Shown here in pieces: positions 20,100 through 39,551 of a stretch of 39,551 nucleotides of DNA. This DNA is from Fibrobacter sp. Its GTDB lineage: Bacteria > Fibrobacterota > Chitinivibrionia > Chitinivibrionales > Chitinispirillaceae. Position 1 is the first letter of the stretch. Each line of letters starts with the position of its first letter. The position numbers and the translations under genes are program-made. Below the pieces are notes generated by a model that was given only the letters and a program-made list of their open reading frames with translations, did no database searches and had not been told where the DNA came from. The stretch covers positions 1-39,551 of the forward strand of contig JAAYIG010000117.1 of NCBI GenBank assembly GCA_012523595.1. Direction: 5' to 3'.

Positions 20100-22562
20100 A
20101 TGAACCCGAAATCCCCATTATTATCCAGTTTAGTTCTGGTTTATTTGTTCTTTCTATTACCCCTGAATGCAGCAGGATGGAATCTTCCATACCTGAAAAG
20201 TGCCAGACACGACTTCTCAGGGTATTACTCAGAAGACCTGAAATCCTTGTTACAATCAGACCCTGATCTGGCCAGAGGAAAACTTCAGAATGGCTGGACT
20301 TATTTCAAACAGACCTTTATCTCAGCAAATGGCCTGATTAAAAACAGCGGATCAGCATCAGAGGCTCAATCAAAAGGACAGGGCTATGGGATGCTTCTTG
20401 CCGTTCTCAATAATGACCAGACTGCATTCAATCAGATCTTCGAAGCGGCAAATCAGTTGCTTTGGAGCGAGGATAAGAAGTCATATTTCTGCTGGTCCTG
20501 GGATGATAGTTGTACAGGAAAAGGTGCTGCTACAGATGCAGATCTGGATATCGGGCTTGCTCTTGTTTTCGCTGATGAACTTCAGAAGTATGGATACTGG
20601 AAAAAGTACAATCAAAACGGGATCACATATCAAAGCAGGGCACTGGAGATTATCAAGTCCATTCGTCTAAATATGTGTTCCGACGAGAGATATCTTTTAC
20701 CTGGTGATAACTGGAGCAGCAGTGGAATAAGCAATCTCAATCCGGGTTATTTTGCCACTGCCTGGATGAAAGTGTTCGATAATTATCAGAAAGAAGTGGA
20801 CTTCAGTGCGGTTGTGGAAAAGTGCTATGCTGTTTTACAAAAACTACCTCATTACAACAAAGGCCAGGCAGCAGACTGGGTAGATACAACCGGTGGACAG
20901 GCATCACTGGGTAAAAAGTACCCTTATAAAGGTCTTGGGATGCAGAACGCGGGAATTATGGCTCAATGGAGAATTGCCATGGATGCATTGTGGTTCAATG
21001 ATCCACGGGCAATCGCATATTGTGAAAATACAAAGCTTACTCTTACGCAGTACTCTAATTCCAATCCAGGAATGATCCTTCTTCAGATGGGGCTGTACGA
21101 TGATCAGGGCAAGTATTGTGAAAACACCAATACTTGTGAAGAGGTGGCCCTCTGGTCATGTGCGATACTGGGATCGAAGAATACTGATTACTCCACAAAA
21201 GGGCTTAACAGCCGTGTTTTGGGGAAAATCATGGGGAGTACTGTTTCATCACAGCTCTATTTCGGATCAACCGATTCTGAACAGGTTTCTATGGTTCGGC
21301 AGGCTGTTACAATGCTTGGTTTTGCTGCAATTACTGGCCAGTTTCCCGATATCAGAAGTGACATGCAGGACCCGTCTTGTAACTTCCTTCTCTCCGGGCT
21401 TATTTCAGTTGCCTCCCCTCTTGAACTCAGCAGCTTGACAGTTGACCTCCGGTCACAACAGCAGATCAAGGTATCAGCCAGACTTGACAGAAGTGCCCCA
21501 TGGTCATTGACTTTTGAAGGGCGGGAGTCGGGGAAAACAGAGATTTTCAGTGGTATGACAGAATCTATCCAGGTGGTTTTTACCGGTGCAGGATGGTATA
21601 AAAAGGAGAAGGTCGATGTCAGGCTTGATGTCACAGGTGTTGATTCTCTGACCCAGGATTCTTTCTTGTCCGCATCTTTTGATATTACCGGTGTCCCGGA
21701 TCTTCCATTTGTACCTGGAAGTACTCTACTGCTCCATGATTTTGAAAACGGCAACGGGGTTAATGCGCTTGGAGGATCATGGTACCTCTTTGATGACAAA
21801 TCTACAAGCGGAAGTTCCACAATTACTCCCTCGGATCCCGCGCTGCTTGTTCTCGATGGTGAGGGGCATCCTGGTTACGGAATCAAGATACAGTTTGAAA
21901 TCGATCAGTATGCCGGAGTGGGTACGACCTTTCTTGATTCAGGAACAGTTGACTTGAGCATGTTTGAGAGTGTCTCTTTCAGCTATAAAACAGAGGGTGA
22001 AATCAGTGATATTCTCTTTATGGTCGGCACAGCAAACATCAAAAACTTCGCCTATAATCTCAAGACAATCCCTGCTTCTAAAAACTGGAAAGAGGAAACG
22101 GTAAGATTTACAGATCTCAAACCGCCTTCCTGGTCACCGACCACTATTATGGATCTAAAAGTAACTCAGAAGATACAATGGCAGGTCCAGGGGGTTGGGC
22201 AGAGGGGAACTCTTTACCTCGATAATATCAAATTAAAACTGAAAAAAGGTATGCTCCCTGGAAATGACATCCTTTATGCTGTAACACCTATTGTCAATAA
22301 CGTGAGGACCAGAAAACCACTGTGGCAGGTGTCAGTATCACAGGTGATGAAAAACCTGGTTATTGAGATCGATAACAGGGATGTTTCCGGAATTGAGATG
22401 TACAACGTGGCTGGAAAACGTGTTATGGCTTCAAATTCAATATCCTTCAACAATTCGGGCCGGATTGTGATTCCAATTGGCAGAAAGCTTTCACCCGGAC
22501 ATTATACAGTCGTGCTCTACGACAGAAAAAATCGAATAAGCCACGGGATTCTCTGGTGGTAA
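20100..22562 (+). CDS. GH8 cellulase with CBM11-like module and sorting-like C-terminus
   Basis: An exported multidomain endoglucanase of about 820 residues. The signal peptide is residues 1-25 (LVLVYLFFLLPLNAAG). The GH8 domain spans about 27-440. It shows the proton-donor region SEAQSKGQGYGMLLAV (E88) and the family signature ATDADLDIGLAL with D146 and D148. An Ig/FlgD-like region follows at about 445-545, and then a CBM11-like beta-sandwich (GGSWYLFDDKSTSG to GTLYLDNIKLK). The last 70 residues (GIEMYNVAGKRVMASNS, LSPGHYTVVLYDRKN) resemble a T9SS type A sorting domain. The enzyme should cleave beta-1,4-glucan by inversion. The in-frame GTG at 20064 is less likely because the signal peptide begins at 20100. 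Confidence 0.92.
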   Translation: MNPKSPLLSSLVLVYLFFLLPLNAAGWNLPYLKSARHDFSGYYSEDLKSLLQSDPDLARGKLQNGWTYFKQTFISANGLIKNSGSASEAQSKGQGYGMLLAVLNNDQTAFNQIFEAANQLLWSEDKKSYFCWSWDDSCTGKGAATDADLDIGLALVFADELQKYGYWKKYNQNGITYQSRALEIIKSIRLNMCSDERYLLPGDNWSSSGISNLNPGYFATAWMKVFDNYQKEVDFSAVVEKCYAVLQKLPHYNKGQAADWVDTTGGQASLGKKYPYKGLGMQNAGIMAQWRIAMDALWFNDPRAIAYCENTKLTLTQYSNSNPGMILLQMGLYDDQGKYCENTNTCEEVALWSCAILGSKNTDYSTKGLNSRVLGKIMGSTVSSQLYFGSTDSEQVSMVRQAVTMLGFAAITGQFPDIRSDMQDPSCNFLLSGLISVASPLELSSLTVDLRSQQQIKVSARLDRSAPWSLTFEGRESGKTEIFSGMTESIQVVFTGAGWYKKEKVDVRLDVTGVDSLTQDSFLSASFDITGVPDLPFVPGSTLLLHDFENGNGVNALGGSWYLFDDKSTSGSSTITPSDPALLVLDGEGHPGYGIKIQFEIDQYAGVGTTFLDSGTVDLSMFESVSFSYKTEGEISDILFMVGTANIKNFAYNLKTIPASKNWKEETVRFTDLKPPSWSPTTIMDLKVTQKIQWQVQGVGQRGTLYLDNIKLKLKKGMLPGNDILYAVTPIVNNVRTRKPLWQVSVSQVMKNLVIEIDNRDVSGIEMYNVAGKRVMASNSISFNNSGRIVIPIGRKLSPGHYTVVLYDRKNRISHGILWW

Positions 22563-22584
22563 CAGCGATTAGCTGTTTCCATTT

Positions 22585-22684
22585 CGGGGTCGGAATCGGT
22601 ATCGGCATCGGAATCGAAAATTCCTGTTTTTTAATTTAACCCTTTGAGTTTTCCGGAAAAAAGATGATACCGATTCCGACCCCG
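22585..22684. repeat. 19-bp perfect inverted repeat of the GATACCGAT family
   Basis: The arm CGGGGTCGGAATCGGTATC (22585-22603) is repeated in perfect inverted form, GATACCGATTCCGACCCCG, at 22666-22684, with 62 bases between. The left arm continues with further degenerate CGGxATC units to about 22615. A near-identical 21-base copy lies at 34217-34237. The element sits between the GH8 stop and the FlgT-like gene and could form a long hairpin at the end of the GH8 transcript, though no T-run follows. Confidence 0.75.
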
Positions 22685-22774
22685 ATGAAGAAAAGGCCGG
22701 CACGATCAAATATGCTTCCCGATTCTCTCCATATTGTATTTTGATTTCTGAAATTGAAATCAATGGAGGCCAGT

Positions 22775-23905: not shown

Positions 23906-23918
23906 AATTGAGATTTTC

Positions 23919-24974: not shown

Positions 24975-25107
24975 GCCACCGATTATTTTACATGAGAACG
25001 TAAAGTTGAGCGGAAGGTTTTCTTCCAGCATTCAACCCAGTATGAGATGTGTCTTAAAGTGTCCCCTGCATTATTGGGTTCAGGGCTTTTCCGGCTCCCG
25101 GCAGCAA

Positions 25108-25162: not shown

Positions 25163-26152
25163 TTACTTTGTAATATTAAGTGGCTGAGAAAGCCGTCCTT
25201 CCTTACTGTCAAGCACTACCAGATAACGTCCGTTGGGAAGGCTGCTGCTGTTCCAGTTGATTGTCTTTGCAGAAGTGGTACCATTGTAAAGGGAACGCAC
25301 CTTGTTTCCCAGCATATCGTGAATGGAAAGGGTAACGCTTTGTTTCTGCGGCAGATTAAAGGATATTGTAGATGGATTTACTGAGAATACAGTTGCAACT
25401 CTGAAAGATTTGGCGCGATTAACGCTGCTTGACGAGAACAGATCCCCGTAGGTTAAACCAACAAGCTCGATGTCGTCAACAGAAAAATCGGCATCACCAG
25501 ATTTAACCTGAAAAGCCATTTTGTTAACAGCAGAAGCTCCGTGGCTCCATGTCCATCCTGCTTTGTCCATTTCGGAATAGGCTTCAGGAAGAAGATCATC
25601 AACTGGAATATTCACAGTGGTCCAATCTGCGGTGAGTTTGATTGAATACCCGTATTGGCCCCAGTCATATCCTCCATCAGCAAAGTCTTTAGTATCAAAT
25701 TGCATTCTTACAGTTCCACTTCCTTTTACCTTCAATTTCACTGCAGTCATTTTGCTGAAATCGAGATATTTCTCTCCTTCACCGACGAGATTGCATCCAA
25801 CTGCGGCATAAGGATAATCCAATGAACTGGTAGATGTTGAGATGAGAACATGCATAAAACTGTCAGGGACCATGGTTATTTCATTATCTTTAGCAACAAT
25901 TCTTTCTCCAGCGGCATTTTTCACTGTTGAACCGCTTTTATCATCAAACGTATACCAGTATCCTCCTCCCAGGTAAGCAGCACCTTCTGTAACACAACCA
26001 TATACCTCACCCAGAGTATTCTGGTGAGGAGCTCCACCATAAGCATCATTGAAATCATCAAGAAATGCCGGAGCACTCAGATTGACATCGTCCTGAGCAA
26101 ATGCCGCTGCGGAAAAAAGGCAAACAGCGATAATGGTACGAAAGATAGACAT
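25163..26152 (-). CDS. exported single CBM11-like protein with sorting-like C-terminus
   Basis: A 329-residue protein with a signal peptide (MSIFRTIIAVCLFSAAAFAQ) and no catalytic domain. Residues about 25-235 form a beta-sandwich like that in the GH8 protein, with GGGYWYTFDDKSGSTV, PYAAVGCNLVGEGEKYLDFS, WTTVNIPVDDL and ADFSVDDIEL. These fit the CBM11/CIA30-like carbohydrate-binding fold. The C-terminal 80 residues (VTLSIHDMLGNKVRSLYNGT, LPNGRYLVVLDSKEG) resemble the T9SS type A sorting domain. It could bind beta-glucan at the cell surface, helping adhesion or presenting substrate to the neighbouring cellulases. The ATG at 26152 has AAGGGG upstream. It has its own predicted promoter and terminator, so it is a single-gene unit. 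Confidence 0.8.
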   Translation of the reverse strand: MSIFRTIIAVCLFSAAAFAQDDVNLSAPAFLDDFNDAYGGAPHQNTLGEVYGCVTEGAAYLGGGYWYTFDDKSGSTVKNAAGERIVAKDNEITMVPDSFMHVLISTSTSSLDYPYAAVGCNLVGEGEKYLDFSKMTAVKLKVKGSGTVRMQFDTKDFADGGYDWGQYGYSIKLTADWTTVNIPVDDLLPEAYSEMDKAGWTWSHGASAVNKMAFQVKSGDADFSVDDIELVGLTYGDLFSSSSVNRAKSFRVATVFSVNPSTISFNLPQKQSVTLSIHDMLGNKVRSLYNGTTSAKTINWNSSSLPNGRYLVVLDSKEGRLSQPLNITK

Positions 26153-26419: not shown

Positions 26420-28894
26420 TTATCTGGCATTTATAAAATTAATTTTGCTGCCGTTTGCTTTGCCATCAATATAATGAACAACAGTATACATCCCGGAAGG
26501 AAGCCTGGAAAGAGAGACAGAGGCCATCCCATTATTCTTTCCGTTTAATCCCTGTTTCAGGACAAGTTTCCCTTTCATATCGAAAATGGCTACATCGAGA
26601 CGGCTTCCGGAGTATTCCGGTAATTTGTAAGTCAGTGATCCATTGGATATTAAGGGCTTCAGATAGCTCTGAAGGATCATTTCCGGCATTTTGTATCTGG
26701 ATGAGACGACTACCTGCATCTGATCCACGAAAACATTGTCAAGTGTTAGCTGCGCGAAACCTATCGAATCGTAAACAGTAAACCGTAGAGCGGTAATGTT
26801 GTTGAGATCAAGTGGAACTGATGCAGTTTTCCATGAGGGTTGAGTGAAATCAGCAATATTGAGCCGATATGTGTTTCTTACCTTCATAACAGGGACAACT
26901 GTGCTGTAGTAAGCACCATCTGTGATATTTGCCTGTTCGAGTTCAACATAGACAGTTGCTTCTTTGTTTGATTTCATATCAAAAGCGATGGCTTTTGCAG
27001 GACCAATTGAAATCGGACTGCCACCATTGAGGGTTGCTTTTACACCTGCATAGATTGAATTGCTCTGGGAGGCAACATTACAGGTGACCCTTAAAGCACC
27101 TGAACCTTCATCAGTTACTATCGACATTACACTTGTTCCAGTGCCAAAAGCCACCCATTTGTTACCGTTTATCTGGTGAGTCGAATCTTTGTCATCAAAA
27201 TTATCCACCAGAACATCACCAGTGCTTGTTGCAGGTTTTTTGGCAGCCTCGATGATGATATTTATCCCTTTAGCTTTGACAATATCATAGGCAACAATAT
27301 TACCCTCGATACTGAGATTGGCAGCAACAGTTTCCCCGCTTAAAAAGAATCCATTATCCGCACTTCCATCCCACTCTTGACTGATACTTGTTCCGGTTCC
27401 GGTAAAGGATTTTGATCCATAAGCACCGCTGATCTTAACAGTCCAGGCAACCGACTTTGAAAAACCCGCGGTAAACTTTACTTTCTGCGAGGAGAAGTTT
27501 ACCCCCTCCTTGTTGGTTGCACTGAAGGCCTGGTTGACCTTTACATCAGTTCCTGGATCATTTATGGCCTTTAAGAATGCAACCGCGCCTGTGATACCTG
27601 CATTATAATCGATTGCCACTTCACAGTGTTCCGGTGTACCATCATTGCTCCAGTTACCGTTGTCATCCGGTCCGCTGACAAGTCCGCCTTGAGGCCCGGA
27701 TCTGGTGGTTCTATAATGGATATAATTTGCCGGAGAGTTGTTAAAACCGATTACATAAGATCTCTTAGGGTCGCCGAAGTAACCTGCAACCCAGTCAACG
27801 TGGTTTTTAATGCGCTTAGAATAGAGTGCCCGTGTGTCATCAGAATTGCTAACAATGTAAGCTAGTGCATATTCAAAAGCAGCAGATCCGGCTTCACGGG
27901 CAGTTCCCCATCCACTGTTCTTGAAGATGTCCTTGAAAACGCCCGTGGTTTGTATTTTGGTCTCTATGAATGAGACATTACTGGTTAGAGCAGAAGACCC
28001 TCCCAGACCCTGGCGCCAGACCTCAAAAGCTGCCAATGGTCCTATGTAAGCATAACCCATGATGCTATAAGGGCTTGTGATCGATTTTTTTGCCCAGGTT
28101 TTGTAAATCGGATTCTCATCGTTGGTTGCACGGTATAATTCAACTCCGGCTGCAACCATCTTGTCATTTATCTGCCTCTGTAATTTGCCCTCCACATCAG
28201 GATAATAGTAGAGATATTTACCATGTTTCTGCTGAGCGCTACAATAGAGGTTATTATCCCCGCCTGCCTCAATTTTTTTCCTTGCAAATTCGAATGCCAC
28301 TTTTGCCTTAGCGAGGCACAGATCTGCATAGCTTTTATCGAACTTGCGGTATAAAGTGGACATCAGGGCAAGACAGGCGGCGTATGTTGCCGGAATGTCG
28401 GCGCCGCTGCAGAGGAGGATCTGATTTCCACTGCGTCCACTCTCATATTTCACACCCCAGGTCTCATGCTCATCTGCTGCTTGTCCTACATCCAGAACGA
28501 TCGTATTGTCATTAATTACAGCTTTGGTCAGATAATCTGTGGCAAATTTTACCTCAGTGAGGATATTGGGGATGCCGTTTGATACGGTATATGCACTGGG
28601 GAAAACATCGTAACCTTTCAGAAGGCAGTAAACAGTGTAGCCCAGAGGCATTCCGAATTTGATATAATCACCTGCATCGTACCATCCTCCATCGAGCTTA
28701 TTACCATTATAGTTATCTCCGCCATGCCAGGCATTGGCATAACCCGGGTTACAGTTGCCTGCCGAACCACTGGCGAGACCAGCCCTCTGGTAGCAGTAAA
28801 ACTTGATGAGCATGTCATGAAGCTGGTTGTAATTCTGAGCCCAGACCTGGGAGACGAGTGAGAGTGCTAACGCCAATAGGATCAATTTTTTCAT
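26420..28894 (-). CDS. GH9 endoglucanase with Ig-like, CBM-like and sorting-like modules
   Basis: An exported cellulase of 824 residues. The signal peptide covers 1-20. The GH9 domain runs from about 22 to 445. It contains DGGWYDAGDYIKF, with the nucleophilic-water aspartates D73 and D76, a YIHYRTTRSG motif near 391-400, and the general-acid glutamate E425 in EHCEVAIDYNAGITGA. A FlgD/Ig-like domain (SISQEWDGSADNGFFLSGE) follows at about 455-555. Next is a CBM11-like sandwich (VLVDNFDDKDSTHQING to AQLTLDNVFVDQM), and finally a sorting-like C-terminus (AIFDMKGKLVLKQG, LPSGMYTVVHYIDGK). GH9 enzymes hydrolyse beta-1,4-glucan with inversion. It lies 65 bases downstream of the GH5 gene, probably in one operon. 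Confidence 0.94.
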   Translation of the reverse strand: MKKLILLALALSLVSQVWAQNYNQLHDMLIKFYCYQRAGLASGSAGNCNPGYANAWHGGDNYNGNKLDGGWYDAGDYIKFGMPLGYTVYCLLKGYDVFPSAYTVSNGIPNILTEVKFATDYLTKAVINDNTIVLDVGQAADEHETWGVKYESGRSGNQILLCSGADIPATYAACLALMSTLYRKFDKSYADLCLAKAKVAFEFARKKIEAGGDNNLYCSAQQKHGKYLYYYPDVEGKLQRQINDKMVAAGVELYRATNDENPIYKTWAKKSITSPYSIMGYAYIGPLAAFEVWRQGLGGSSALTSNVSFIETKIQTTGVFKDIFKNSGWGTAREAGSAAFEYALAYIVSNSDDTRALYSKRIKNHVDWVAGYFGDPKRSYVIGFNNSPANYIHYRTTRSGPQGGLVSGPDDNGNWSNDGTPEHCEVAIDYNAGITGAVAFLKAINDPGTDVKVNQAFSATNKEGVNFSSQKVKFTAGFSKSVAWTVKISGAYGSKSFTGTGTSISQEWDGSADNGFFLSGETVAANLSIEGNIVAYDIVKAKGINIIIEAAKKPATSTGDVLVDNFDDKDSTHQINGNKWVAFGTGTSVMSIVTDEGSGALRVTCNVASQSNSIYAGVKATLNGGSPISIGPAKAIAFDMKSNKEATVYVELEQANITDGAYYSTVVPVMKVRNTYRLNIADFTQPSWKTASVPLDLNNITALRFTVYDSIGFAQLTLDNVFVDQMQVVVSSRYKMPEMILQSYLKPLISNGSLTYKLPEYSGSRLDVAIFDMKGKLVLKQGLNGKNNGMASVSLSRLPSGMYTVVHYIDGKANGSKINFINAR

Positions 28895-28959: not shown

Positions 28960-30738
28960 TTATTTTCCGCTTACAACCGTTTTAAATAATTTTGCTCCGT
29001 TGAGGTTATCAAGCCTGATAAGCCACATTCCGCCCGGCAGACCGCTGATGTTCAATTCCGATTTACTCTGATTGATAGAACCGCTTCTGATGACCCGGCC
29101 GTTAGCTCCAATGATGGAATAAGCCGTGAATCCGTGGCTGTGAGGGAAATCTATCCTGAATCCCCTTTTGTTAACCACTATCTCTGGATCAGCGTTATTT
29201 ATTCTGTACTGCGGGAGTGCGTTGTCGATAGCGGTTATGACATTTGTGAGTTCGATCCATTCGATCATGTAACCGGAGCCGGTTGTGTTCACAAACCGGA
29301 GTTTTACTGTATGTTGTCCGGCAGGGACATTTATATTGGTGACAATCGAGGTCCAGGTGGTACTTTTCTGTACGGAAATCTCACCTGCTTTTGTATTATC
29401 CACATAAACCTCTATATTGCCGTCTCCTGCTTTTGCCAAAGTCCGGATAACAATTTTACTTGTAGCGACTGACAGGTTGAATTTATAGGAAACCCAGTTA
29501 TCATCTCCCGATGTGTTGACCTTAAGACAAGAATCATTAGCTGTTCTGACATCTATCTGGTCTCTGTCCACAAAGCTGACTTTTGCCTGCTGTACACTGC
29601 CGTAGTATCTGTTGAATTGTCTGGCTGCACGAGTACCAGGCATATTAAAAGAAGCATCCTTTGCAGGACCTTCAATTCCTGATTTCCATTCCGGTTCATA
29701 CTCATCAGTCGACTGAGCCGCAAGCAGGTCCTTTACTATCTGACCGGATTCGCTGGGGTTTGTGCCTCCGGAGAAGCAGCTCGATCTTTCGTGAGATGAA
29801 ACAGACCAGTTGCACCAGCTTAGCTTGTATTTGCCGTTGATATATTTGTCAAACCACCAATTTGTATTTGTTCTATCGAGTTGGTTCTTTCCCTCTTGCC
29901 CGCCGTTAGAATGAGATGTCCCCCATTCGCTGACAAATATCGGGACGCGTCCCAGTCCGTTACCCAGATATGTTGATTCCATTCCAACCCCGCCATCATC
30001 ACCATTTATTACATAGTATGCATTGGGGCCATGGCTGGCAGCATAAAAATGGAAAGCGTAGGCTACATTTTTATAAGGATTGCCGCTGTTATCTTTGATT
30101 TGATCGGATGCAGCTATTCCGACAAACTGGCAGTAATAGGGTGTACCCAGGATAATGAGGTTATTGGCGCCCTCATTACGGATCGCCTGAGTAACATTTT
30201 TAAGGTAGGACTTTATGGCCCCCCAGGTTTTCGCTGCATCCTCAATAGTGCCGGTGGTAGCGCCGCCGGCTGTGATTGGTTCATTATAGACTTCAAAAAT
30301 CACATTCGGAGTATTTTTGTACTTTTGGGCCTGTTCTTTGAAAAAAGCTATTGCCTGCTGCTCTTCATTGTGCGCATTATGGGAGTGCCAGTCGATAATC
30401 ACATAGATTCCCTTGGAAATGGCTCTTTCAATAACTGTTTTGACGCCATCCCATCCACTGCCATTGGCATATGCTACCCGGACCACAGAGCACTTCCAGG
30501 AATCAACAAGGAAATCTACAGTGCTTGTATTATAATAGGTGTACCCGGGCCAGTCGGTTCTGCTCCAATAAAAGCTCATGCCTCTAAGCTGGACGATATT
30601 TCCATTCTTATTCAGGAGGTAGGCTCCACTGGTTGTAAGATTGCCATGTCTCGCCACAGGAGTTTGTGCTGAACTGAGAATCGCAGTTCCAAGTATCAGG
30701 GTTGCGGTAATTAACCCCTTAAATAGATGTTTATTCAT
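28960..30738 (-). CDS. GH5 endoglucanase with CBM6-like and sorting-like modules
   Basis: An exported cellulase of about 592 residues. The signal peptide is about 1-25. The GH5 TIM barrel (about 28-325) begins with VARHGNLTTSGAYLLNKNG and resembles the GH5_2 group. The acid/base glutamate is E153 in IFEVYNEP, and the nucleophile is E271 in IFVSEWGTSHSNGG; HFYAASHG is also typical. A CBM6/CBM35-like beta-sandwich lies at about 395-510 (GNIEVYVDNTKAGEIS, GQHTVKLRFVNTTGSGYMIE). The C-terminus (YSIIGANGRVIRSGSINQSK, LPGGMWLIRLDNLNG) looks like a T9SS sorting domain. The second of two adjacent ATGs (30738) is better spaced from AAAGGAGAG. It retains configuration during hydrolysis of beta-1,4-glucan. 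Confidence 0.93.
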   Translation of the reverse strand: MNKHLFKGLITATLILGTAILSSAQTPVARHGNLTTSGAYLLNKNGNIVQLRGMSFYWSRTDWPGYTYYNTSTVDFLVDSWKCSVVRVAYANGSGWDGVKTVIERAISKGIYVIIDWHSHNAHNEEQQAIAFFKEQAQKYKNTPNVIFEVYNEPITAGGATTGTIEDAAKTWGAIKSYLKNVTQAIRNEGANNLIILGTPYYCQFVGIAASDQIKDNSGNPYKNVAYAFHFYAASHGPNAYYVINGDDGGVGMESTYLGNGLGRVPIFVSEWGTSHSNGGQEGKNQLDRTNTNWWFDKYINGKYKLSWCNWSVSSHERSSCFSGGTNPSESGQIVKDLLAAQSTDEYEPEWKSGIEGPAKDASFNMPGTRAARQFNRYYGSVQQAKVSFVDRDQIDVRTANDSCLKVNTSGDDNWVSYKFNLSVATSKIVIRTLAKAGDGNIEVYVDNTKAGEISVQKSTTWTSIVTNINVPAGQHTVKLRFVNTTGSGYMIEWIELTNVITAIDNALPQYRINNADPEIVVNKRGFRIDFPHSHGFTAYSIIGANGRVIRSGSINQSKSELNISGLPGGMWLIRLDNLNGAKLFKTVVSGK

Positions 30739-31125: not shown

Positions 31126-32895
31126 ATGGGTCGTTTTACTCTCAAGACCGCTCTCTTAGGACTGGCCTCGGTCCTGTTAGCATCTTCGTCCTTGTTTGCT
31201 GTTGATTCCAAAGTAGATGATCATGAGGACGGCACAAACCAGAACGATTTCCTGTATTACTGGTACTACTACGATGATAACTCCGGCCTCGGTACTAATG
31301 ATCGTCCGCAGGTAGAGACTCCAGGTACTCCTTCAGTCATTAACGTGGAATTCGAAGAAAAAAACCGCGAAGCTTATGGTAATCCCAATGATACATGGAA
31401 GGTAAAGGAATACACTTTTACTGTAGGCGATGATGGCAGTAATAAATATGCTACCATGCCTTTCACATTCGGCTCAAGCTGGAAAGCATCCTATGGTACT
31501 GCATACCCTTACGTGGGAATAGGTACTATGCTTACAGAAGAAGGTAAGTCACTCGATCTTACCGGTGCAACAGCAGTGTCGTTCAGAATCAAAGGCAGCG
31601 AAGCAATGTCTGTTGATTTCAAAATCCAGACCAAAGATATCGATGATGATTCTACGTTTGGTTACTATCAGAGTAGCTTTGATGTCACTGACGATTGGCA
31701 ACAAATCACTATTAATATTGCCGATCTCGCACAGCCTGCATGGGCTCAGAAAGATGCCCCGTTTGATTTTGATATCACCCAATGCACAAAACTGGCGTGG
31801 GAAGTCAAGAAAGAATTCAACATGACCGTAACCGAGGCGACTCTCGATATTGATGATGTCTGGATTATAGATTATGAGTGGGTTTCTCCTTTTATATGGA
31901 CAGACGTAGTGCCTGTAGCTTCCAGCACACTTCCAGCAACTGGTCTGTTTTCTAATTTTGATGTAACTCCAGCTAATGCTTCTCCGCTCGGTACCTACTG
32001 GTATGCTTACAATGATGTGGAAATCGGCGGAACTTCAACTGTTCTGGAAGGGGCATTGCCGGATGAAGAGACTGGTCGTCTTCTGATCACAATCACAGAA
32101 GGTGCTGCTAAACTGTTGTATGCACTTGGCCCGACAATTGATAAAGGCGGTGTTTCTGTTCAGGCTTTTATAGGAATTGGATGTAATCTCTATGATTCCG
32201 CAACTGCCCGTTACTGGAATGCCACTGCCGCAGGCGCAAACAGTGTTTACTTCCATTACTATGCTAATAGCGATCTGGACAAGATTACAGTGGAGATCAG
32301 CGACAACTATGATGTGGCTGATGTAAATAGCCCGACAAAAACCATATCTGACCGCGGTGATGGAGTCTTGTGGTTTATAGATCTCCCAGCAACCGGCGAT
32401 GAATGGTATGCTGTGGAAATTCCTTTCAGTGCTCTTAAAATTCACGAATCATGGGAAGGCGCAAATGCGATCCCATTCAATGCAACTAAGATGGCAAAGC
32501 TGCAGTTTAAAGTTCAGGGTCCGCAAGATGCCAGTGGTTACATAGGTGTTGATAACATCTACTTCCCCGGCGTATCCGAGTACAAATTTACTGATGGTTC
32601 CCCTGTTCTCAAACCTGCTTCGCAGATTGCAAGGACATCGGGTCTCAAGGTCAACTACCTCAATGGCAAGGTCAATGTAAACTGGAATGGTGCAAAACTT
32701 GCTAAAGGTAAAATCAGCCTTATCAACAGCCAGGGTGCCGTGTTTGCAAGTTCATCAATTAAAAATGCTGCAAAGCTTTCAGAGACACTCTCCGCATCCA
32801 AACTGGCTGCCGGAATGTACTTCGTGAAGTTTAATGCTACCGATGTTAATGGCAAGGCTATTAACATTATGTCACCGGTACAGGTTGTGAAGTAA
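31126..32895 (+). CDS. exported non-catalytic protein with two CBM11-like modules
   Basis: A 589-residue protein with a signal peptide (LLGLASVLLASSSLFA) and no recognisable catalytic domain. Module 1 (about 28-250) contains FLYYWYYYDDNSG, AYPYVGIGTML, DWQQITINIADLAQPAW and ATLDIDDVWII. Module 2 (about 268-490) contains GTYWYAYNDVEIGG, VQAFIGIGCNL, EWYAVEIPFSALKI and GYIGVDNIYFPG. Both match the sandwich fold seen in the GH8 and 25163 proteins. The C-terminal 85 residues (GKISLINSQGAVFASSS, LAAGMYFVKFN) look like a sorting domain. The ribosome site AAAGGGG and the strong terminator at 32921 make this a single-gene unit. It is probably a surface glucan-binding or adhesion protein. Confidence 0.78.
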   Translation: MGRFTLKTALLGLASVLLASSSLFAVDSKVDDHEDGTNQNDFLYYWYYYDDNSGLGTNDRPQVETPGTPSVINVEFEEKNREAYGNPNDTWKVKEYTFTVGDDGSNKYATMPFTFGSSWKASYGTAYPYVGIGTMLTEEGKSLDLTGATAVSFRIKGSEAMSVDFKIQTKDIDDDSTFGYYQSSFDVTDDWQQITINIADLAQPAWAQKDAPFDFDITQCTKLAWEVKKEFNMTVTEATLDIDDVWIIDYEWVSPFIWTDVVPVASSTLPATGLFSNFDVTPANASPLGTYWYAYNDVEIGGTSTVLEGALPDEETGRLLITITEGAAKLLYALGPTIDKGGVSVQAFIGIGCNLYDSATARYWNATAAGANSVYFHYYANSDLDKITVEISDNYDVADVNSPTKTISDRGDGVLWFIDLPATGDEWYAVEIPFSALKIHESWEGANAIPFNATKMAKLQFKVQGPQDASGYIGVDNIYFPGVSEYKFTDGSPVLKPASQIARTSGLKVNYLNGKVNVNWNGAKLAKGKISLINSQGAVFASSSIKNAAKLSETLSASKLAAGMYFVKFNATDVNGKAINIMSPVQVVK

Positions 32896-33963: not shown

Positions 33964-33967
33964 AAAG

Positions 33968-34049
33968 CGGAGGACGAGGGATTCGAACCCCCAAGACCTT
34001 GCGGTCGGCGGTTTTCAAGACCGCTGGATTACCATTATCCTAGTCCTCC
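33968..34049 (-). tRNA. tRNA-Ser (anticodon UGA)
   Basis: Read on the minus strand from 34049, an 82-nt class II tRNA folds cleanly. The acceptor GGAGGAC pairs with GTCCTCC, and the anticodon arm is GCGGT-CTTGAAA-ACCGC with anticodon TGA. The long variable arm contains GACCGCAAGGTC, and the T arm is GGGGG-TTCGAAT-CCCTC. The discriminator is G, as expected for serine tRNA. CCA is not encoded. It lies five bases from the SDR stop codon, on the opposite strand. Confidence 0.95.
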
Positions 34050-34836: not shown

Positions 34837-34840
34837 AATT

Positions 34841-34875
34841 AAAAGCCTGCCGGGAAATCTCCGGCAGGCTTTTTT
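34841..34875 (+). terminator. strong terminator after hsp20
   Basis: A 13-bp stem, AAAAGCCTGCCGG (34841-34853) and CCGGCAGGCTTTT (34861-34873), has a 7-base loop and ends in a run of six T residues. It lies four bases after the hsp20 stop. Confidence 0.95.
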
Positions 34876-35241
34876 AACGCTCCCTGAATCCCCTGACGCA
34901 CTAAAAGAAATCTTCCTTGCAGAGAGCCCCCAAAATGCCTCGGTGGGGGACTTTAAGATGGTGCAGGCAGGTGAGTTTTGTGATTAAGAGTGGTAATGTG
35001 GTTAACAGATTACTCTTTACATATTAATAGGTTTTTCCTCGTAGACTCGTCGAAATGACAACCTGGACTGTTGCAGGAAGAAGAATGAAAGTTACAGAAA
35101 TGATCACATCTGGATGCAGGATGATGTAATAAATGTATATTGAATAATATACCTGTCCACAGGAAAAAGAGAGTTTTGCGGGACAGAAGTAAACCTGTGC
35201 GAGTGAAGAAATCCTTCGCTGGAAACAAAACGGAGGCAGAT
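34876..35241. other. intergenic region upstream of the metallopeptidase-like gene
   Basis: About 365 bases without a supported gene. The only structure I see is a hairpin with arms CCCCCA (34927-34932) and TGGGGG (34944-34949), without a T-run. The frame that reaches back to 35140 is an extension lacking signal-peptide features. No clear promoter was found. Confidence 0.4.
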
Positions 35242-36465
35242 ATGAATCATAAAGGCTCTGTTATCTTAACTCTGTTTTTACTGGGACTTTTCAATTATTC
35301 TGTTATTGCTCAGACCGGCAACATCACCTATACACTTCATCGTGAAAACAACCCCACACAGACACAGCAGAATGCTTATGCAAAGATCCAGGTCGCAATG
35401 GATTCGGCACTGGGCTACTATAACAAGTATACCTCTATTACAAAATTTCTGAATGTCTATTATAATCCTGATGTATCGACTGCAGATGCCAATTTTAACG
35501 GAACTATCAGATTTGGCAAAGAAAATTACATGGTTGTGCACACTGCAATGCACGAAATCGCCCATACAGTGGGGGTGGGGACCACAAATGAATACAGAAA
35601 CCTGATGCAGAACGGGGTTTTTACAGGTGCATACGCTACAGCGATGATAAGGGAGGTCACCGGAGATCAAAATGCAGTAGTTAATGGCGATAACCAGCAT
35701 TTCTGGCCTTACGGACTTAACTATGCCAACGAGGTAAAGTCTTCACAGGATCTTATCAATCACTGTAAGATTGTCGGTGCTATGTACAGTGATATGTTCC
35801 GGGAGGAATTCTTCAGAACCTGCCGTCTGAAGTCAAGGTTGGATGGCAGGTGTATGACTGTCCTTACCGATAATTCACTGCGGCTTGGCGATTGCAACAG
35901 TTCCGCATCAGTTGTCAGGATGATCTCTCTTAACGGAGAAAACGTTTTCAGGCTCGAGTTTGGAAACAAGGTCCTTGATATTCCTAATGAATCGACCTCG
36001 GCCGGAATAGTAGTCGGGCTTTACAACTGGAATGGAGGCGGACATCAGAGGGTAATCTTTGAATTTGAACAAGACACCAACCTCGCACGCCTGAAAATGC
36101 AGCACAGCGGACTCTATCTCAGGGCTGACGGGGATAGAATTATTCAGGACAGAGGCACAGTCTCTCCTGAGAGCCAGTACTGGGAACTGGTTGATGATCA
36201 GGTTAAATCAGTTTATTCGGTACAGAACAGACATAGAATTACAGAAGGGATCAGAGTTATCAATGGTCTCATAACTGTAAATTCATCTGTTCTGGAAGGG
36301 AAAACCGTTAAATTGAAGATAACAGATCTTCATGGACGTGTAATAAGGTCTGTTCTTTTGTCTGGAGATGCTGTCATATCTACAGCAGGATTTATCCCTG
36401 GTGTTTACATCATCAATCTTTACGGGAACGGAAAAAATTTTACCAGCCGTTTTATGGTAAGGTAA
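35242..36465 (+). CDS. exported metallopeptidase-like protein with beta-trefoil and sorting-like domain
   Basis: A 407-residue exported protein. The signal peptide is 1-24 (VILTLFLLGLFNYSVIAQ). Residues about 25-190 hold a zincin-like domain with HEIAHTVGVGT: H104, E105 and H108 form the HExxH zinc site and G111 fits the metzincin turn, but T114 stands where the third histidine or aspartate ligand is usual. Residues about 190-325 look like a ricin-type beta-trefoil (LDGRCMTVLTDNSLRLGDCN, LDIPNESTSAGIVVGLYNWN). The C-terminus (LKITDLHGRVIRSVLLSG, FIPGVYIINLYGNGK) resembles the T9SS sorting domain. GGAGG lies upstream of the ATG. It may bind plant polysaccharide and cut associated protein, or be non-proteolytic. 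Confidence 0.75.
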   Translation: MNHKGSVILTLFLLGLFNYSVIAQTGNITYTLHRENNPTQTQQNAYAKIQVAMDSALGYYNKYTSITKFLNVYYNPDVSTADANFNGTIRFGKENYMVVHTAMHEIAHTVGVGTTNEYRNLMQNGVFTGAYATAMIREVTGDQNAVVNGDNQHFWPYGLNYANEVKSSQDLINHCKIVGAMYSDMFREEFFRTCRLKSRLDGRCMTVLTDNSLRLGDCNSSASVVRMISLNGENVFRLEFGNKVLDIPNESTSAGIVVGLYNWNGGGHQRVIFEFEQDTNLARLKMQHSGLYLRADGDRIIQDRGTVSPESQYWELVDDQVKSVYSVQNRHRITEGIRVINGLITVNSSVLEGKTVKLKITDLHGRVIRSVLLSGDAVISTAGFIPGVYIINLYGNGKNFTSRFMVR

Positions 36466-36628
36466 GCGACACACTATCGGGCTATCTACTGGTGACCGCT
36501 CTGAAGGTTATTTACCCCGGGGGTACCTTTTCTGTCTTGCAGAAACCCTTCCTTTTCTCTCCTTGCTTCATCTCTGTTCGGCTTTTATCTTAAAGCTGAA
36601 CTGTGATAAGGTTTCCATCGAGGAATAT

Positions 36629-38338
36629 ATGTTTATGAGTACAAAAAGTGTATGTATGTTGCTTTTATCGGGTGTCCTTTTTCTACCCTGTTCCCAGGTT
36701 CTAAGCGGAAAAGTGATTGATAAGCAGGGAGCGGGAATTGATGGCGCCCTGGTTGAGCTCTTAAATGCCAATCTGTCTGCAACTACTGCAAATGATGGTT
36801 CCTTTTCCATCTCAGTACCAATGAGTACAAAACCTGGAGTAATCCGGAGGGTATATCAGGCGCCTCAGCTCATAGGCAGTACTCTTCATTTTGCTGTCAG
36901 CGATAATTCTGCGCATGTGACTGTGAGTGTTTATACGCTCAACGGGAAATTTATCTATAACGCACTGGACCGCAAACTTGGAGCAGGTTTTTACAGTCTG
37001 AATCCGATCAGCCGGTCACTCAAGGCCAATATCTATGCTGCAAAACTTCAGATCGGTAATGAGAGTACTTTTTTTAAACTGCCCTGGATGAAAGAGATGA
37101 ATCTTTCTGATTTACTCCGGAAAGGAAACAAGGCTGCAACTGTTAGAATATTACAAAAAAGAATGGTTGCTGTTGACAGTGTGAGAGTTTCCAAAACCGG
37201 CTACACTGCAGTTTCTATTCCCGTAGGTACCTATGATACAACCATGACAATTACACTGGAACCCTATACTCCATCATATCATATTAATCCTCCTGACCCC
37301 TGTTACAGCAGGTTTTATGTAGATGGCTGCATAGAGGGTGATCTTAACAGTGCCTGCGGGGGCAGATGCAGGGTAGCGAATTCCTGCAGCCCGCCGGAGG
37401 ATCCAAGCAAAGCCAATCTGCCCAAGACTTTTATCTGCCCGAGGTTCATGCTTTTCAGCACCGAGATGCTCCAGGCAGCAAAAGACGATGCAGCGCTTTA
37501 CGGTTGGGATGCTGATGATCCGCCTTTCAATTATGGAGTGGTGGGACATGATCCCGATATCGGGGGAGTTGATGACGGGCCGAGCAGTTGCTGCCAGTGT
37601 TACCAGATCATATTTGAGGAACCTGAACCAAGTTCACCCAAACATCCAGAACTCCCTTATCCCAAGCCTTTGATTGTCCAGAGTTTCAACACTGCAGCCA
37701 GCGGACCTTATGGGTTTGATGTGTTCATGGGTGCAGGAGGATACGGGGCATTCAATTCCTGTTATGATGATCCTGATTTCGGGAATACCTCAAATTTCGA
37801 TGAGTTTATCTATGATAAATATCCTTATCAGAATCCAGGCAGCGGGGGTATCTCTTTCCTTCGATACGAGGCTGAGTGCCGGGGGAATGCATGGCCTCCT
37901 ACTATCGAAGCGTTGCAATCAACTGCCTGTCAGGAGAAGATTGAGGAAATGTGTAATCAGGCACTGGTGAGTTCAAACCCGCAAGTTACTGAAGATACGC
38001 GCCGTTCCTGTATCGAGTCAAACAAGCCAGGCTCACTCTATCATCAGAACTGGAAAGTTATGGTGAAGCGTGTGCGCTGCCCGGATAATCTCACACGGGT
38101 CACCGGATGCCGGCTGATAGAGAATCATCTCCCTCTTCCATTTCCGGAGGTGCAGACTCCTGCCGATGCCACTGCCAATGGTACATTTAGAAGCGGATAT
38201 CATACTACTACGATGCAGGATTGCTGCAAACCAACATGCGCCTGGACAAACTGGGTGGCAGATCAAAACCTTCCGGTAGATGGGGAGTGGAACGCTTTTT
38301 ATTCCTGTGATAAAAACGGTATACCGTTTACTAAGTAA
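36629..38338 (+). CDS. GH45 endoglucanase, catalytic domain apparently circularly permuted
   Basis: An exported protein of about 569 residues. After the signal peptide comes a carboxypeptidase-regulatory-like half (LSGKVIDKQGAGIDGALVEL, about 25-65). A sorting-like insert (about 80-150; VTVSVYTLNGKFIYNALDRK) follows, then the second half (VDSVRVSKTGYTAVSIPVGT, about 182-212). The GH45 domain fills about 222-569: SSCCQCYQIIF near 319-329, the putative acid D364 in PYGFDVFMGAGGYGAFNSC, RVRCPDNLTRVTGC at 481-494, and finally the family hallmark DCCKPTCAW at 531-539 with the putative base D531. In fungal GH45 enzymes that hallmark is at the N-terminus. GAGG lies close to two in-frame ATGs (36629, 36635). 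Confidence 0.85.
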   Translation: MFMSTKSVCMLLLSGVLFLPCSQVLSGKVIDKQGAGIDGALVELLNANLSATTANDGSFSISVPMSTKPGVIRRVYQAPQLIGSTLHFAVSDNSAHVTVSVYTLNGKFIYNALDRKLGAGFYSLNPISRSLKANIYAAKLQIGNESTFFKLPWMKEMNLSDLLRKGNKAATVRILQKRMVAVDSVRVSKTGYTAVSIPVGTYDTTMTITLEPYTPSYHINPPDPCYSRFYVDGCIEGDLNSACGGRCRVANSCSPPEDPSKANLPKTFICPRFMLFSTEMLQAAKDDAALYGWDADDPPFNYGVVGHDPDIGGVDDGPSSCCQCYQIIFEEPEPSSPKHPELPYPKPLIVQSFNTAASGPYGFDVFMGAGGYGAFNSCYDDPDFGNTSNFDEFIYDKYPYQNPGSGGISFLRYEAECRGNAWPPTIEALQSTACQEKIEEMCNQALVSSNPQVTEDTRRSCIESNKPGSLYHQNWKVMVKRVRCPDNLTRVTGCRLIENHLPLPFPEVQTPADATANGTFRSGYHTTTMQDCCKPTCAWTNWVADQNLPVDGEWNAFYSCDKNGIPFTK

Positions 38339-38370
38339 TACTGCCGGTTTATTAAGATAGAATACTATGT

Positions 38371-38398
38371 GGGGCTGTTGTAAGGCGGCCCCTTTTTT
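38371..38398 (+). terminator. terminator after the GH45 gene
   Basis: GGGGCTG (38371-38377) pairs with CGGCCCC (38386-38392), with one G-U pair and an 8-base loop, followed by six T residues. It lies 32 bases after the stop codon. Confidence 0.85.
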
Positions 38399-38957
38399 GT
38401 CGGTAATACTTGGTTCTTCTTTGATAATACTCAGTGTTCACATCATCTACATTCAGGGCACAGGCATAAATTCCGGTTAAAAAAATAAAGATTTATCAAT
38501 TGATGCAGGTTGGACAGGCATGGGTAGTGTATTGTCGTAGGTTGGGGTAATAATAAATCGATCTGTCACAGGAAGATAAAGTAGAAAACAGTACCATTTT
38601 TGTGAGTTGTTTTGCAGGAAACGAGATTTGTTTCTTTTTTCTGGGCACTGTTTTTCCCCGGAGATGAAATATGGATTTGAATTCCTTAAAAATGGCTTTA
38701 TAGTTCACAAATTCACCCCGGAGGTGAAACAAGGATACTGCAGCTCTCATGCCCAGGTCAATGTCAGTTTCCTGATATCTCCATTAATAGTGAAAAGTAC
38801 GATTATTCAGTGATCAGGCCATGACTTAACTGTTTCTTGATTTTGAAATATCCGCAATAGGGAGGACTTTCTCTTATCACCCATTGGCAGCATATACAGA
38901 AATGCTGTAGACATTAAAAAGTTTTCTCCTCGATGGCCCGTCAACACGACAGAAGGA
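38399..38957. other. gene-free region with two related CCCCGGAG hairpin motifs
   Basis: About 560 bases between terminators contain no convincing gene; the short frames on both strands have no family features. Two related segments occur about 63 bases apart: TTTTTCCCCGGAGATGAAAT near 38651-38670, and ATTCACCCCGGAGGTGAAAC at 38711-38730. The second is a palindrome (TTCACC-CCGGA-GGTGAA). These look like degenerate copies of a small dispersed repeat. Confidence 0.4.
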
Positions 38958-38997
38958 AATAAAAAACGGGAGTGTGGTAATCTGCACACTCCCGTTT
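38958..38997 (-). terminator. terminator of the partial gene at the right edge
   Basis: CGGGAGTGTG (38967-38976) and CACACTCCCG (38985-38994) form a 10-bp stem, extended by AAA/TTT pairs, with an 8-base loop. On the minus strand it runs into TTTTTTATTT. It lies about 30 bases after the stop codon at 39027. Confidence 0.92.
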
Positions 38998-39026
38998 CAG
39001 GCAGTAAAGGAATACTTACCTTTTTT

Positions 39027-39551
39027 TTACTTCTTGATAAATCTTCCTGTAAAATTTCCGATCTTTAGAATGTAAATACCATTATTCAGGCTGCTGATAT
39101 TAATTCTGCGGGAGTTACTTGCCAAAACTGTCTTTCCCAGTACATCCATTATAACAGCAGACTGTTTTGAGTTATTGCCTGTGAGCACAAGGGAATTTCC
39201 TGTCACCTTGAAGGAGAAGGAACTATTCCGTAACTGTCTCATGTCGATTGAACCGATATTGGTATAGCCATGAACTGACCCTTCCACATACAGATCATGA
39301 ATATTCAGATTCCCGCCACCATCAGAGCGGTTGTTGATAATATTCACAATTATCGGAGTGGCCGAAACAAGGCCCGGAATCATGCTGGTAAGGTCAAATT
39401 CATGTGCGCCGCTTTGGTACTGTTCGGGGGAGTTCCATATATTTTCCGTTCCGGTTGCGCCATAGGTTACTCTCAATGTTCTTCCACCGGTAGCATACCA
39501 GCGTATTTTCAGCACGTCAAGAGATTTCAGTTCCAGCCTCATGACACCATC
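39027..39551 (-). CDS. C-terminus of an exported protein with CBM-like and sorting-like domains (partial)
   Basis: The frame is open at the right edge of the window; the methionine at 39542 is internal. About 174 residues are visible. The first 90 form the end of a beta-sandwich (LKSLDVLKIRWYATGGRTLR, HEFDLTSMIPGL, GGGNLNIHDLYVEG) similar to CBM6-like modules. The last 70 residues are a sorting-like module (SAVIMDVLGKTVLASNSRRI, LNNGIYILKIGNFTGRFIKK) of the same type as in the cellulases. The catalytic part, if any, is outside the window. It is oriented opposite to the GH45 gene. Confidence 0.75.
   Translation of the reverse strand, partial: DGVMRLELKSLDVLKIRWYATGGRTLRVTYGATGTENIWNSPEQYQSGAHEFDLTSMIPGLVSATPIIVNIINNRSDGGGNLNIHDLYVEGSVHGYTNIGSIDMRQLRNSSFSFKVTGNSLVLTGNNSKQSAVIMDVLGKTVLASNSRRINISSLNNGIYILKIGNFTGRFIKK

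What the first reader, a model, noticed from the sequence alone, without database searches (positions are those of the whole stretch)
20100..39551. Clustered surface cellulase set with shared sorting-like C-termini
Four hydrolase families (GH8, GH9, GH5, GH45), two CBM-only proteins, a trefoil metallopeptidase-like protein and a partial CBM protein lie within 20 kb. Six complete or partial proteins besides GH45 end in the same type of about 70-residue module, with a G-K-V-x-x-S-like turn and a final L-x-x-G-x-Y-x-V strand. This suggests a cell-surface, cohesin/dockerin-free cellulolytic apparatus. No dockerin or cohesin repeats are visible in any of the proteins.
Basis: partly seen in the sequence, partly recalled or inferred. 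Interest (0 to 1): 0.55.

Follow-up and report, generated by a model that had tools for sequence, protein, structure and literature searches.

The report
Cellulase cluster with relocated sorting domain
A cluster of plant-fibre-degrading enzymes carries the usual tail tag for export to the cell surface, but one cellulase, like many other proteins in this bacterial phylum, carries the same kind of tag near its front end, embedded in another domain, where no such tag is expected.

Summary
Seven window proteins (GH8, GH9, GH5+CBM6, two CBM-only, metallopeptidase/ricin-B, one cut by the contig end) end in type IX secretion (T9SS) C-terminal domains (CTDs). The genome encodes SprA/Sov, PorU and PorV over curated cut-offs. 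A CTD model trained without the window finds these seven tails plus one internal site. No dockerin or cohesin match was seen. T9SS-routed cellulases are already proposed for Fibrobacter succinogenes, so this part is ordinary.

It has a CTD homologue near its N-terminus, nested inside a split transthyretin-like/carboxypeptidase-regulatory domain. This composite module recurs full-length on 13 proteins in this genome and at least 22 and 43 in two relatives; own carriers include GH10, GH43, GH62, glucuronoyl-esterase-like and expansin-like proteins. Of 52 carriers examined, none has a convincing C-terminal CTD. Related GH45s in Myxococcales-type genomes, and GH45s of another Fibrobacterota family, start with a lipoprotein-like Cys instead.

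I infer that the module displays its cargo from the N-terminus, most likely through T9SS and uncleaved. Homology is well supported; function is untested. A 2016 paper listed an internal Por domain without comment in the passages read.

The parts
20064..22562 (+). GH8 endoglucanase-like protein; C-terminal T9SS CTD at 22356-22541
   Evidence: PF01270 E=1.6e-33; TIGR04183 19.7 bits in own-genome search, below cut-off; leave-window-out CTD model 23.4 bits
25163..26191 (-). CBM-only (CIA30-like) protein; CTD at 25187-25378
   Evidence: PF08547 weak and below cut-off, PF18962 29.4 bits over cut-off; TIGR04183 30.3 bits; 52.7 bits
26420..28894 (-). GH9 endoglucanase; CTD at 26468-26617
   Evidence: PF00759 E=2.7e-57; TIGR04183 28.3 bits; 40.9 bits
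28960..30819 (-). GH5 cellulase with CBM6; CTD at 28972-29142
   Evidence: PF00150 E=2.8e-42, PF03422 E=1.4e-8; TIGR04183 20.2 bits, below cut-off; 28.3 bits
31126..32895 (+). CBM-only protein (two CIA30-like stretches, SGBP_B-like); CTD at 32677-32841
   Evidence: PF08547 E=3.5e-9, PF18329 E=5.6e-6; TIGR04183 25.1 bits in the genome search, 21.5 by hmmscan; 26.1 bits
35140..36465 (+). HExxH metallopeptidase-like protein with ricin-B beta-trefoil; CTD at 36280-36462
   Evidence: PF14200; TIGR04183 34.9 bits; 43.2 bits; HEIAH motif seen in the translation, its meaning recalled
36629..38338 (+). GH45 endoglucanase with N-terminal composite module and no C-terminal CTD
   Evidence: PF02015 25.6 bits, below cut-off; PF13620 E=5.7e-7; homologues
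36701..37264 (+). composite N-terminal module of GH45 (split TTR-like domain plus nested CTD-like domain)
   Evidence: alignment A1; full-length match 1-189; AF2 model
36692..36820 (+). first half of the split TTR/carboxypeptidase-regulatory-like domain (model residues 7-49)
   Evidence: AF2; VIA Z 12.8 to SusC NTE 9hfj, 80 residues, 2.4 A, over model 6..202
36839..37087 (+). nested CTD-like sandwich (model residues 56-138)
   Evidence: TIGR04183 15.2 bits; leave-window-out CTD model 22.5 bits, 25.7 on the excised domain; hhalign of the family 98.9%; AF2 of the domain alone pLDDT 84.8, 7 strands
37154..37255 (+). second half of the split TTR-like domain (model residues 161-194)
   Evidence: AF2, VIA
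39027..39551 (-). protein cut by the contig end; CTD at 39030-39191
   Evidence: PF18962 31 bits over cut-off; TIGR04183 32.1 bits; 25.1 bits

Best explanation
This is a T9SS-exported, non-cellulosomal cellulose-degrading surface set of a Chitinispirillaceae-type Fibrobacterota bacterium. Seven proteins use ordinary C-terminal CTDs: Sec export, then SprA/PorV, then probably PorU cleavage and surface attachment. GH45 uses a relocated version of the same signal. A CTD-derived sandwich was inserted into a loop of an N-terminal TTR-like domain. I infer that this nested CTD is recognised by the T9SS translocon/shuttle from the N-terminal side. Because both its ends run back into the TTR domain, it is probably not removed, and it holds the catalytic domain at the surface like an N-terminal anchor. 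Shown: presence of SprA, PorU and PorV, homology and position of the domains, recurrence, absence of a convincing second CTD, and lipoprotein-like N-termini in other GH45s. Inferred: secretion route, non-cleavage, anchoring.
For: Machinery: SprA 438.8 bits vs cut-off 200, PorU 538 vs 420, PorV 164 vs 90. Nested CTD family (47 rows) vs 108 own C-terminal CTDs: hhalign 98.9%, score 78, against a maximum of 14.1 in 40 column-permuted nulls. A nested-family HMM scores 108 of 108 C-terminal tails above both FlgD Ig domains (median 20.8 bits vs 1.7). The A1 profile hits the CTDs of RemZ, RemA and a nuclease from solved translocon complexes, and a GH167, over its nested columns only. The domain alone is modelled with seven strands; Foldseek ranks 2 and 3 are RemA and RemZ CTDs. 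The F/Y-D-x-x-G glycine is kept (96% vs 99%) and a last-strand basic residue is more frequent (87% vs 56%). 52 module carriers: no C-terminal tail above 7.3 bits. Module on 7 of 7 complete Fibrobacterota GH45s of the window's subfamily, 0 of 7 informative Myxococcales/Deltaproteobacteria/Proteobacteria-labelled ones, 0 of 23 PF02015 GH45s of six f8-family genomes, but present on a PF02015 GH45 of the window's own family (L030).
Against: Apart from the Chitinispirillum GH19, the T9SS signals in the papers seen are C-terminal. The nested copies rarely keep the terminal K/R (5% vs 55%, a column filled in about half the rows of each set), and G-x-Y is eroded (G 55% vs 95%, Y 47% vs 88%). PMC10994853 says conserved CTD motifs mainly specify the fold, so their retention shows fold, not recognition. 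As a single sequence the window GH45 domain is hardly closer to the C-terminal family than FlgD is (hhalign 81% vs 82% and 41%; 25.7 bits vs 22.0 and 12.6). Ig-like folds are common: DUF3244 is Foldseek rank 1, fibronectin-III and GH2 sandwiches tie with the mirolase CTD, and no Foldseek match is below 1e-3. Domain arrangement is uncertain (pTM 0.45). FGE-like and CotH-like carriers have no obvious need to be outside. No localisation data.
Confidence: 0.55

Rival explanations
1. The nested domain is an exapted CTD that no longer engages T9SS. With its TTR-like host it forms an N-terminal spacer or binding module; the proteins are periplasmic or reach the surface by another route.
For: Scarcity of the terminal K/R and erosion of G-x-Y; some carriers are FGE-like, CotH-like or DUF6055 proteins; TTR/CPD-like domains serve other roles elsewhere (SusC NTE match).
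Against: Of 15 own carriers, two GH45s and the GH10, GH43, GH62, glucuronoyl-esterase-like and expansin-like proteins (7) belong to or resemble wall-degrading families, and three more are esterase/PETase-like (expansin and two esterase matches below cut-off); enzymes on insoluble wall polymers would be of little use in the periplasm. GH45s elsewhere have a lipoprotein-like N-terminus in this place.
Confidence: 0.33
2. The module is a surface anchor rather than an export signal: the proteins are exported by T9SS or otherwise, and the nested CTD stays bound to a PorV/PorP-like outer-membrane protein, as proposed for type B CTDs.
For: The genome has several PorV-family members, four ORFs over the cut-off. 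Lipoprotein-like N-termini in GH45s without the module. Type B CTDs leave the translocon on other carriers that then anchor them (PMC10994853 passages; PMC12618676 passages).
Against: The nested domain matches type A TIGR04183/PF18962; only one carrier matched CHU_C, below its cut-off. No specific partner was identified.
Confidence: 0.3
3. Nothing unusual: the nested similarity is only a shared Ig-like fold, as with FlgD, and GH45 is simply a protein without a T9SS signal.
For: TIGR04183 gives 19.2 bits to this genome's FlgD (called FlgD by me from its sequence) but only 15.2 to the window GH45. The leave-window-out CTD model gives FlgD 27.7 bits over two domains and GH45 22.5. hhalign of the C-terminal family to single FlgD segments is 41% and 82%, to the single GH45 domain 81%.
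Against: hhalign of the nested family to FlgD segments is 12% and 35%, but 95% to a single window CTD and 98.9% to the CTD family. The nested-family HMM gives FlgD 1.7 bits and scores all 108 C-terminal tails higher. Nested copies on C123, C105 and C199 exceed the TIGR04183 cut-off (27.5, 27.5, 26.1 bits).
Confidence: 0.07

Closest known systems
T9SS type A cargo of Fibrobacter succinogenes (BTD/FPm-1 = CTD; Raut 2019, PMC6851124)
   Same: Cellulases of GH5 and GH8 and hemicellulases with C-terminal TIGR04183-like domains, no cellulosome, T9SS proposed. Seven window proteins are of this kind.
   Different: The passages I read describe only C-terminal domains; its GH45 FSU_1893 is listed with no BTD and no T9SS signal. 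The window GH45 has the domain near the N-terminus.
Chitinispirillum alkaliphilum GH19 chitinase CHISP_3496 (Sorokin 2016, PMC4814513, passages read)
   Same: The text lists a Por sorting domain before a C-terminal GH19 catalytic domain: an internal Por domain in a relative.
   Different: No comment on the odd position in the passages read; carries a ChiC domain; nesting in a TTR/CPD domain is not mentioned there; sequence not examined here.
CTDs of RemZ, RemA and NucA bound to SprA-PorV (PMC10994853; PDB 8gl8, 8gl6, 8glk)
   Same: Seven-stranded sandwich; sequence-profile and fold similarity to the nested domain.
   Different: Those are at the C-terminus and their removal marks export; the nested one has sequence on both sides.
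TTR-like / carboxypeptidase-regulatory domain, e.g. SusC NTE (9hfj) and carboxypeptidase D TTR domain (5aq0)
   Same: The outer domain matches with Z 12.8 (80 residues, 2.4 A) and 12.0 (77 residues, 1.6 A).
   Different: Here it is interrupted by an insertion of about 110 residues (model residues 50-160) holding the CTD-like domain.

Membership tests
T9SS type A cargo (seven C-terminal proteins) | TIGR04183/PF18962-type domain at the extreme C-terminus | tested here: met
   7 of 7 at C-termini; over the TIGR04183 cut-off 5 of 7 in the genome search and 4 of 7 by hmmscan; all seven found by the leave-window-out model
T9SS type A cargo (seven C-terminal proteins) | T9SS machinery in the same genome | tested here: met
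   SprA, PorU, PorV over cut-offs; GldK/L/M/N and the rest not searched
T9SS type A cargo (seven C-terminal proteins) | PorU cleavage of the CTD and attachment to the surface | not testable with these tools
   needs fractionation and mass spectrometry
T9SS type A cargo (GH45) | CTD at the C-terminus | tested here: not met
   GH45 tail gives no CTD hit; the CTD-like site is at residues 136-203 of 625
T9SS type A cargo (GH45) | CTD-homologous seven-stranded domain | tested here: met
   terminal K/R and G-x-Y only partly kept across the family
T9SS type A cargo (GH45) | T9SS-dependent secretion | not testable with these tools
   needs T9SS mutants or a reporter
Cellulosome component | dockerin or cohesin module | tested here: not met
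   neither family among Pfam matches at E<=0.1 in 10 window proteins; the rest of the genome was not searched for them
GH45 | PF02015 catalytic domain over the curated cut-off | tested here: inconclusive
   25.6 bits vs 27; the homologue L155 (70% identical) reaches 27.0

The most novel reading that the evidence does not exclude
Fibrobacterota have a second format of type IX sorting signal: an N-terminal CTD nested in a split TTR-like domain, acting as an uncleaved export-and-anchor module for many proteins. If so, T9SS signals need not be C-terminal, and secretome predictions that call such proteins periplasmic or unsorted are wrong.
Probability: 0.42. Interest if true: 0.8.

Novelty: new variant of a known kind. 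Interest (0 to 1): 0.6.

Why it matters
T9SS signals are described as C-terminal. A family in which the same domain sits near the N-terminus, inside another domain, would show that position and cleavage can be separated from recognition. It could also account for some wall-degrading enzymes of Fibrobacterota that look unsorted, and it gives a natural construct for asking how SprA-PorV reads its cargo. The seven ordinary C-terminal CTD proteins agree with an already proposed picture of Fibrobacterota cellulose degradation.

Tried and rejected
Pure chance or generic Ig fold for the nested domain: held unlikely because of the permutation null and the two-way FlgD comparison. The single-sequence comparisons alone would not separate the window GH45 from FlgD, and the fold does not decide it.

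GH45 as a protein with a hidden C-terminal CTD: rejected. A first tail scan scored 53 tails, among them the short C12 and C90 fragments, FlgD and other non-carriers. For the final count I left those out, and also three ORFs open at a locus end (L029, L048, L052); with 8 named ones added this gives 52 tails (15 own, 29 other genomes, 8 named). Two weak tail hits remain: C164, 7.3 bits, in the stretch after its Cthe_2159 match, and L033, 2.8 bits. Held-out positive control: 51 of 51, lowest 12.5 bits.

Conserved synteny around GH45: within the 3 kb flanks of eight related loci, of 12 window proteins only GH45 itself matched. The cluster is not shown to be conserved.

The module is therefore not a general GH45 feature.

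The module outside Fibrobacterota was tested only in six genomes holding related GH45s (0 full-length; two partial matches in the carboxypeptidase-regulatory columns). Bacteroidota could not be reached. The tally of 116 of 120 phylum genomes includes partial matches to ordinary C-terminal CTDs, and at most 27 candidates per genome were scored there; I use full-length matches (model position 4 or less to 160 or more) only.

Paper searches for a non-C-terminal or nested CTD. The only prior sighting I found is the Chitinispirillum text. The library holds open-licence papers only, and for most hits I saw only the listing.

Full report
What is in the window. The right half of this contig (39,551 bases, the whole contig) encodes GH8, GH9, GH5+CBM6 and GH45 enzymes, two CBM-only proteins, a HExxH metallopeptidase-like protein with a ricin-B domain, and a protein cut by the contig end. 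Between them lie an LpoB/LipL46-like protein, proteins that look like IspG, a sugar-nucleotide epimerase and a small heat-shock protein (named from recall on reading), and a tRNA-Ser.

C-terminal domains. TIGR04183 matches the ends of seven of these proteins: 34.9, 32.1, 30.3, 28.3 and 25.1 bits over the 23-bit cut-off, 20.2 (GH5) and 19.7 (GH8) under it; by hmmscan four of seven exceed it. A model built from 101 other C-termini of the same genome finds 8 of 64 window ORFs: those seven at their C-termini and GH45 internally.

T9SS machinery. The genome (4.1 Mb, 99.5% complete) has SprA/Sov (438.8 bits with its neighbours in the frame, cut-off 200; 59 of 60 phylum genomes over cut-off, 0 of 14 controls), PorU (538 bits, cut-off 420; 16 of 21 genomes, own included, over cut-off; 0 of 14 controls) and PorV (164 bits, cut-off 90). 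GldK-N were not searched. Fibrobacter succinogenes is already proposed to work this way: Raut 2019 (PMC6851124; abstract, passages and first part of section 6) equates the basic terminal domain with the CTD. Suen 2011 (PMC3079729, passages) reports no dockerins or scaffoldins there. Clustering is real but not special: 7 C-terminal CTD ORFs here against 0.51 expected, with 14 and 11 on two other contigs.

The exception. Of 124 TIGR04183 matches (E<=1) in the genome, 102 end within 15 residues of the ORF end, 11 lie near the N-terminus (residues 84-206) of ORFs of 483-839 residues, and the other 11 are looser C-terminal, second-piece or mid-protein matches including FlgD. The window GH45 is one of the N-terminal ones. 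Its first 210 or so residues hold a carboxypeptidase-regulatory-like domain interrupted by a CTD-like domain. Ten own-genome examples were aligned. Counting matches from model position 4 or less to 160 or more, the profile finds 13 full-length copies in this genome, at least 22 and 43 in the genomes of L155 ('Fibrobacter sp.' MAG) and L157 ('Chitinispirillaceae bacterium' MAG) (counted by hand from the listed rows, whose list was cut), and full-length copies in 6 of 7 more distant phylum genomes. The L155 genome shows the same matches as G057, which one search places in the window's genus; from this and the L157 title I call the organism Chitinispirillaceae-type. Pfam matches of 15 own carriers: GH10, GH43, GH62, glucuronoyl-esterase-like, FGE-like (two), Cthe_2159, CotH and DUF6055 over cut-off; PETase-like over cut-off; two esterase-like and one expansin-like below cut-off; the second GH45-like (C210) had no PF02015 match and is called so from its 49% identity to the window's.

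Is it really a CTD? The nested family (47 rows) aligns with 108 own C-terminal CTDs at 98.9% probability, score 78; 40 column-permuted nulls reach at most score 14.1 and the reversed profile 13.3. FlgD Ig domains are the obvious false friend. For single sequences the separation is poor: the C-terminal family gives FlgD segments 41% and 82% and the GH45 domain 81%, and the leave-window-out model gives FlgD 27.7 bits in two domains and GH45 22.5. At family level it is clear: nested family to FlgD 12% and 35%, to one window CTD 95%; a nested-family HMM gives both FlgD domains 1.7 bits and all 108 C-terminal tails more (median 20.8); the C-terminal model scores 39 of 47 nested sites above the better FlgD domain, the window GH45 among them with 25.7 against 22.0. 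Against the PDB by sequence, the nested columns match GH167, RemZ, RemA and an endonuclease CTD (E 2.5e-4, 0.0022, 0.0091, 0.069), and the outer columns match SusC/RagA-type N-terminal domains, SdrD and, weakly, cellulosomal scaffoldin chains.

Structure. AlphaFold gives a split TTR-like domain around a sandwich (pLDDT 76.9, pTM 0.45). VIA gives Z 12.8 to the SusC NTE and 12.0 to carboxypeptidase D, spanning both halves. Alone, the nested domain has seven strands (pLDDT 84.8, pTM 0.73); Foldseek rank 1 is a DUF3244 protein, ranks 2 and 3 are RemA and RemZ CTDs (E about 7e-3), and VIA rank 2 is the mirolase CTD (Z 8.6, 72 residues, 2.3 A), tied with unrelated Ig folds.

Motifs. The F/Y-D-x-x-G glycine (96% nested vs 99% C-terminal) is kept and a basic residue in the last strand is more frequent (87% vs 56%); the terminal K/R (5% vs 55%) is scarce and G-x-Y weakened. 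PMC11285876 (passages) reports that the L-beta3-beta4 loop and the C-terminal strand matter for T9SS function in P. gingivalis, that the loop motif is not conserved in mirolase, and that a CTD C-terminus can be extended without consequence, which makes a nested CTD conceivable. PMC10994853 holds that conserved CTD motifs specify the fold rather than translocon contacts, with a near-C-terminal Lys as possible exception; I did not establish that the nested basic residue is that Lys.

Does it replace the C-terminal CTD? Among 52 module carriers (15 own, 29 from other genomes, 8 named), no tail scores above 7.3 bits with a model of which a half-trained version recovers 51 of 51 held-out CTDs (lowest 12.5 bits). 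GH45 gives a natural comparison. Seven complete Fibrobacterota GH45s of the window's subfamily, from six MAGs, all have the module; seven informative ones labelled Myxococcales, Deltaproteobacteria or Proteobacteria do not, and begin with a lipoprotein-like Cys and a low-complexity linker (L168 and L169 are cut and uninformative; Cys judged by eye). 23 PF02015 GH45s of six unnamed f8-family genomes (taken to be Fibrobacteraceae) also have a lipoprotein-like Cys, many with Asn before it rather than a classical lipobox, and no module or CTD (Cys judged by eye). Yet L030, from a genome of the window's own family, joins the module to a clear PF02015 domain (140.8 bits). A whole-genome look at six of the Myxococcales-type genomes finds no full-length module. 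So the module sits where other GH45s have what looks like an N-terminal lipid tether.

How it most likely works. T9SS cargo CTDs bind SprA-PorV, after which PorV carries the cargo out (PMC10994853, passages). I infer that the nested CTD is read the same way, with the TTR and catalytic domains as passenger, and that it remains in place because cutting before it would free it and the enzyme together. The alternatives are an anchor-only role and a spacer role. No localisation data decide between them.

What is known. None of eight paper searches returned a description of a nested or N-terminal CTD that I recognised. Sorokin 2016 (PMC4814513, passages) lists an internal Por domain before the catalytic domain of a Chitinispirillum GH19, and calls chitinases without a Por domain periplasmic; an unrecognised nested module would change such calls.

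Verdict. The cluster is an ordinary T9SS-exported cellulase set. The GH45 module and its family are a new variant of the T9SS sorting domain in position and context, with function inferred.

Noticed in passing
G000 contigs C103 and C241 (L078-L080, L089-L091): Two other contigs hold 14 and 11 C-terminal CTD ORFs in 46 and 41 kb, more than the window contig's 7.
   Followed up: partly
L181-L201, L203, L204: GH45s of unnamed f8 genomes (taken to be Fibrobacteraceae) look like lipoproteins: Cys shortly after the signal peptide, often W-N-C or V-N-C. This may bear on FSU_1893, which has no T9SS signal in Raut 2019.
   Followed up: partly
L160:1379-3181: A 'Deltaproteobacteria' MAG has a GH45 69% identical to the window's catalytic domain but with a lipoprotein-like N-terminus and a long Ser-Asp repeat linker; possible gene transfer with exchange of the N-terminal part.
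   Followed up: no
G000:C123:7064-7630 (L087): An expansin-like protein (below cut-off) carries the nested module; its nested part also matches CHU_C below cut-off.
   Followed up: no
G000:C199 (L118) and C59 (L093): Two FGE/SUMF1-like proteins carry the nested module; T9SS ring proteins PorK/N also use an FGE fold according to a paper title in a search listing.
   Followed up: no
G000:C91:7303-7506 (L138): FlgD Ig-like domains score with TIGR04183 and with C-terminal CTD models, a source of false CTD calls; PF13860 FlgD_ig also matches a window CTD.
   Followed up: partly
window 33967-34049: A tRNA-Ser (TGA) gene sits inside the CTD gene cluster, next to an epimerase-like gene.
   Followed up: no
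window 317-15905: The left half looks like a glycosyltransferase/flippase cluster, as for cell-surface polysaccharide; only the translations were read.
   Followed up: no
G000:C12:34211-34666 (L151): A 190-residue ORF consists of little more than a module matched to position 156, near a contig end.
   Followed up: no
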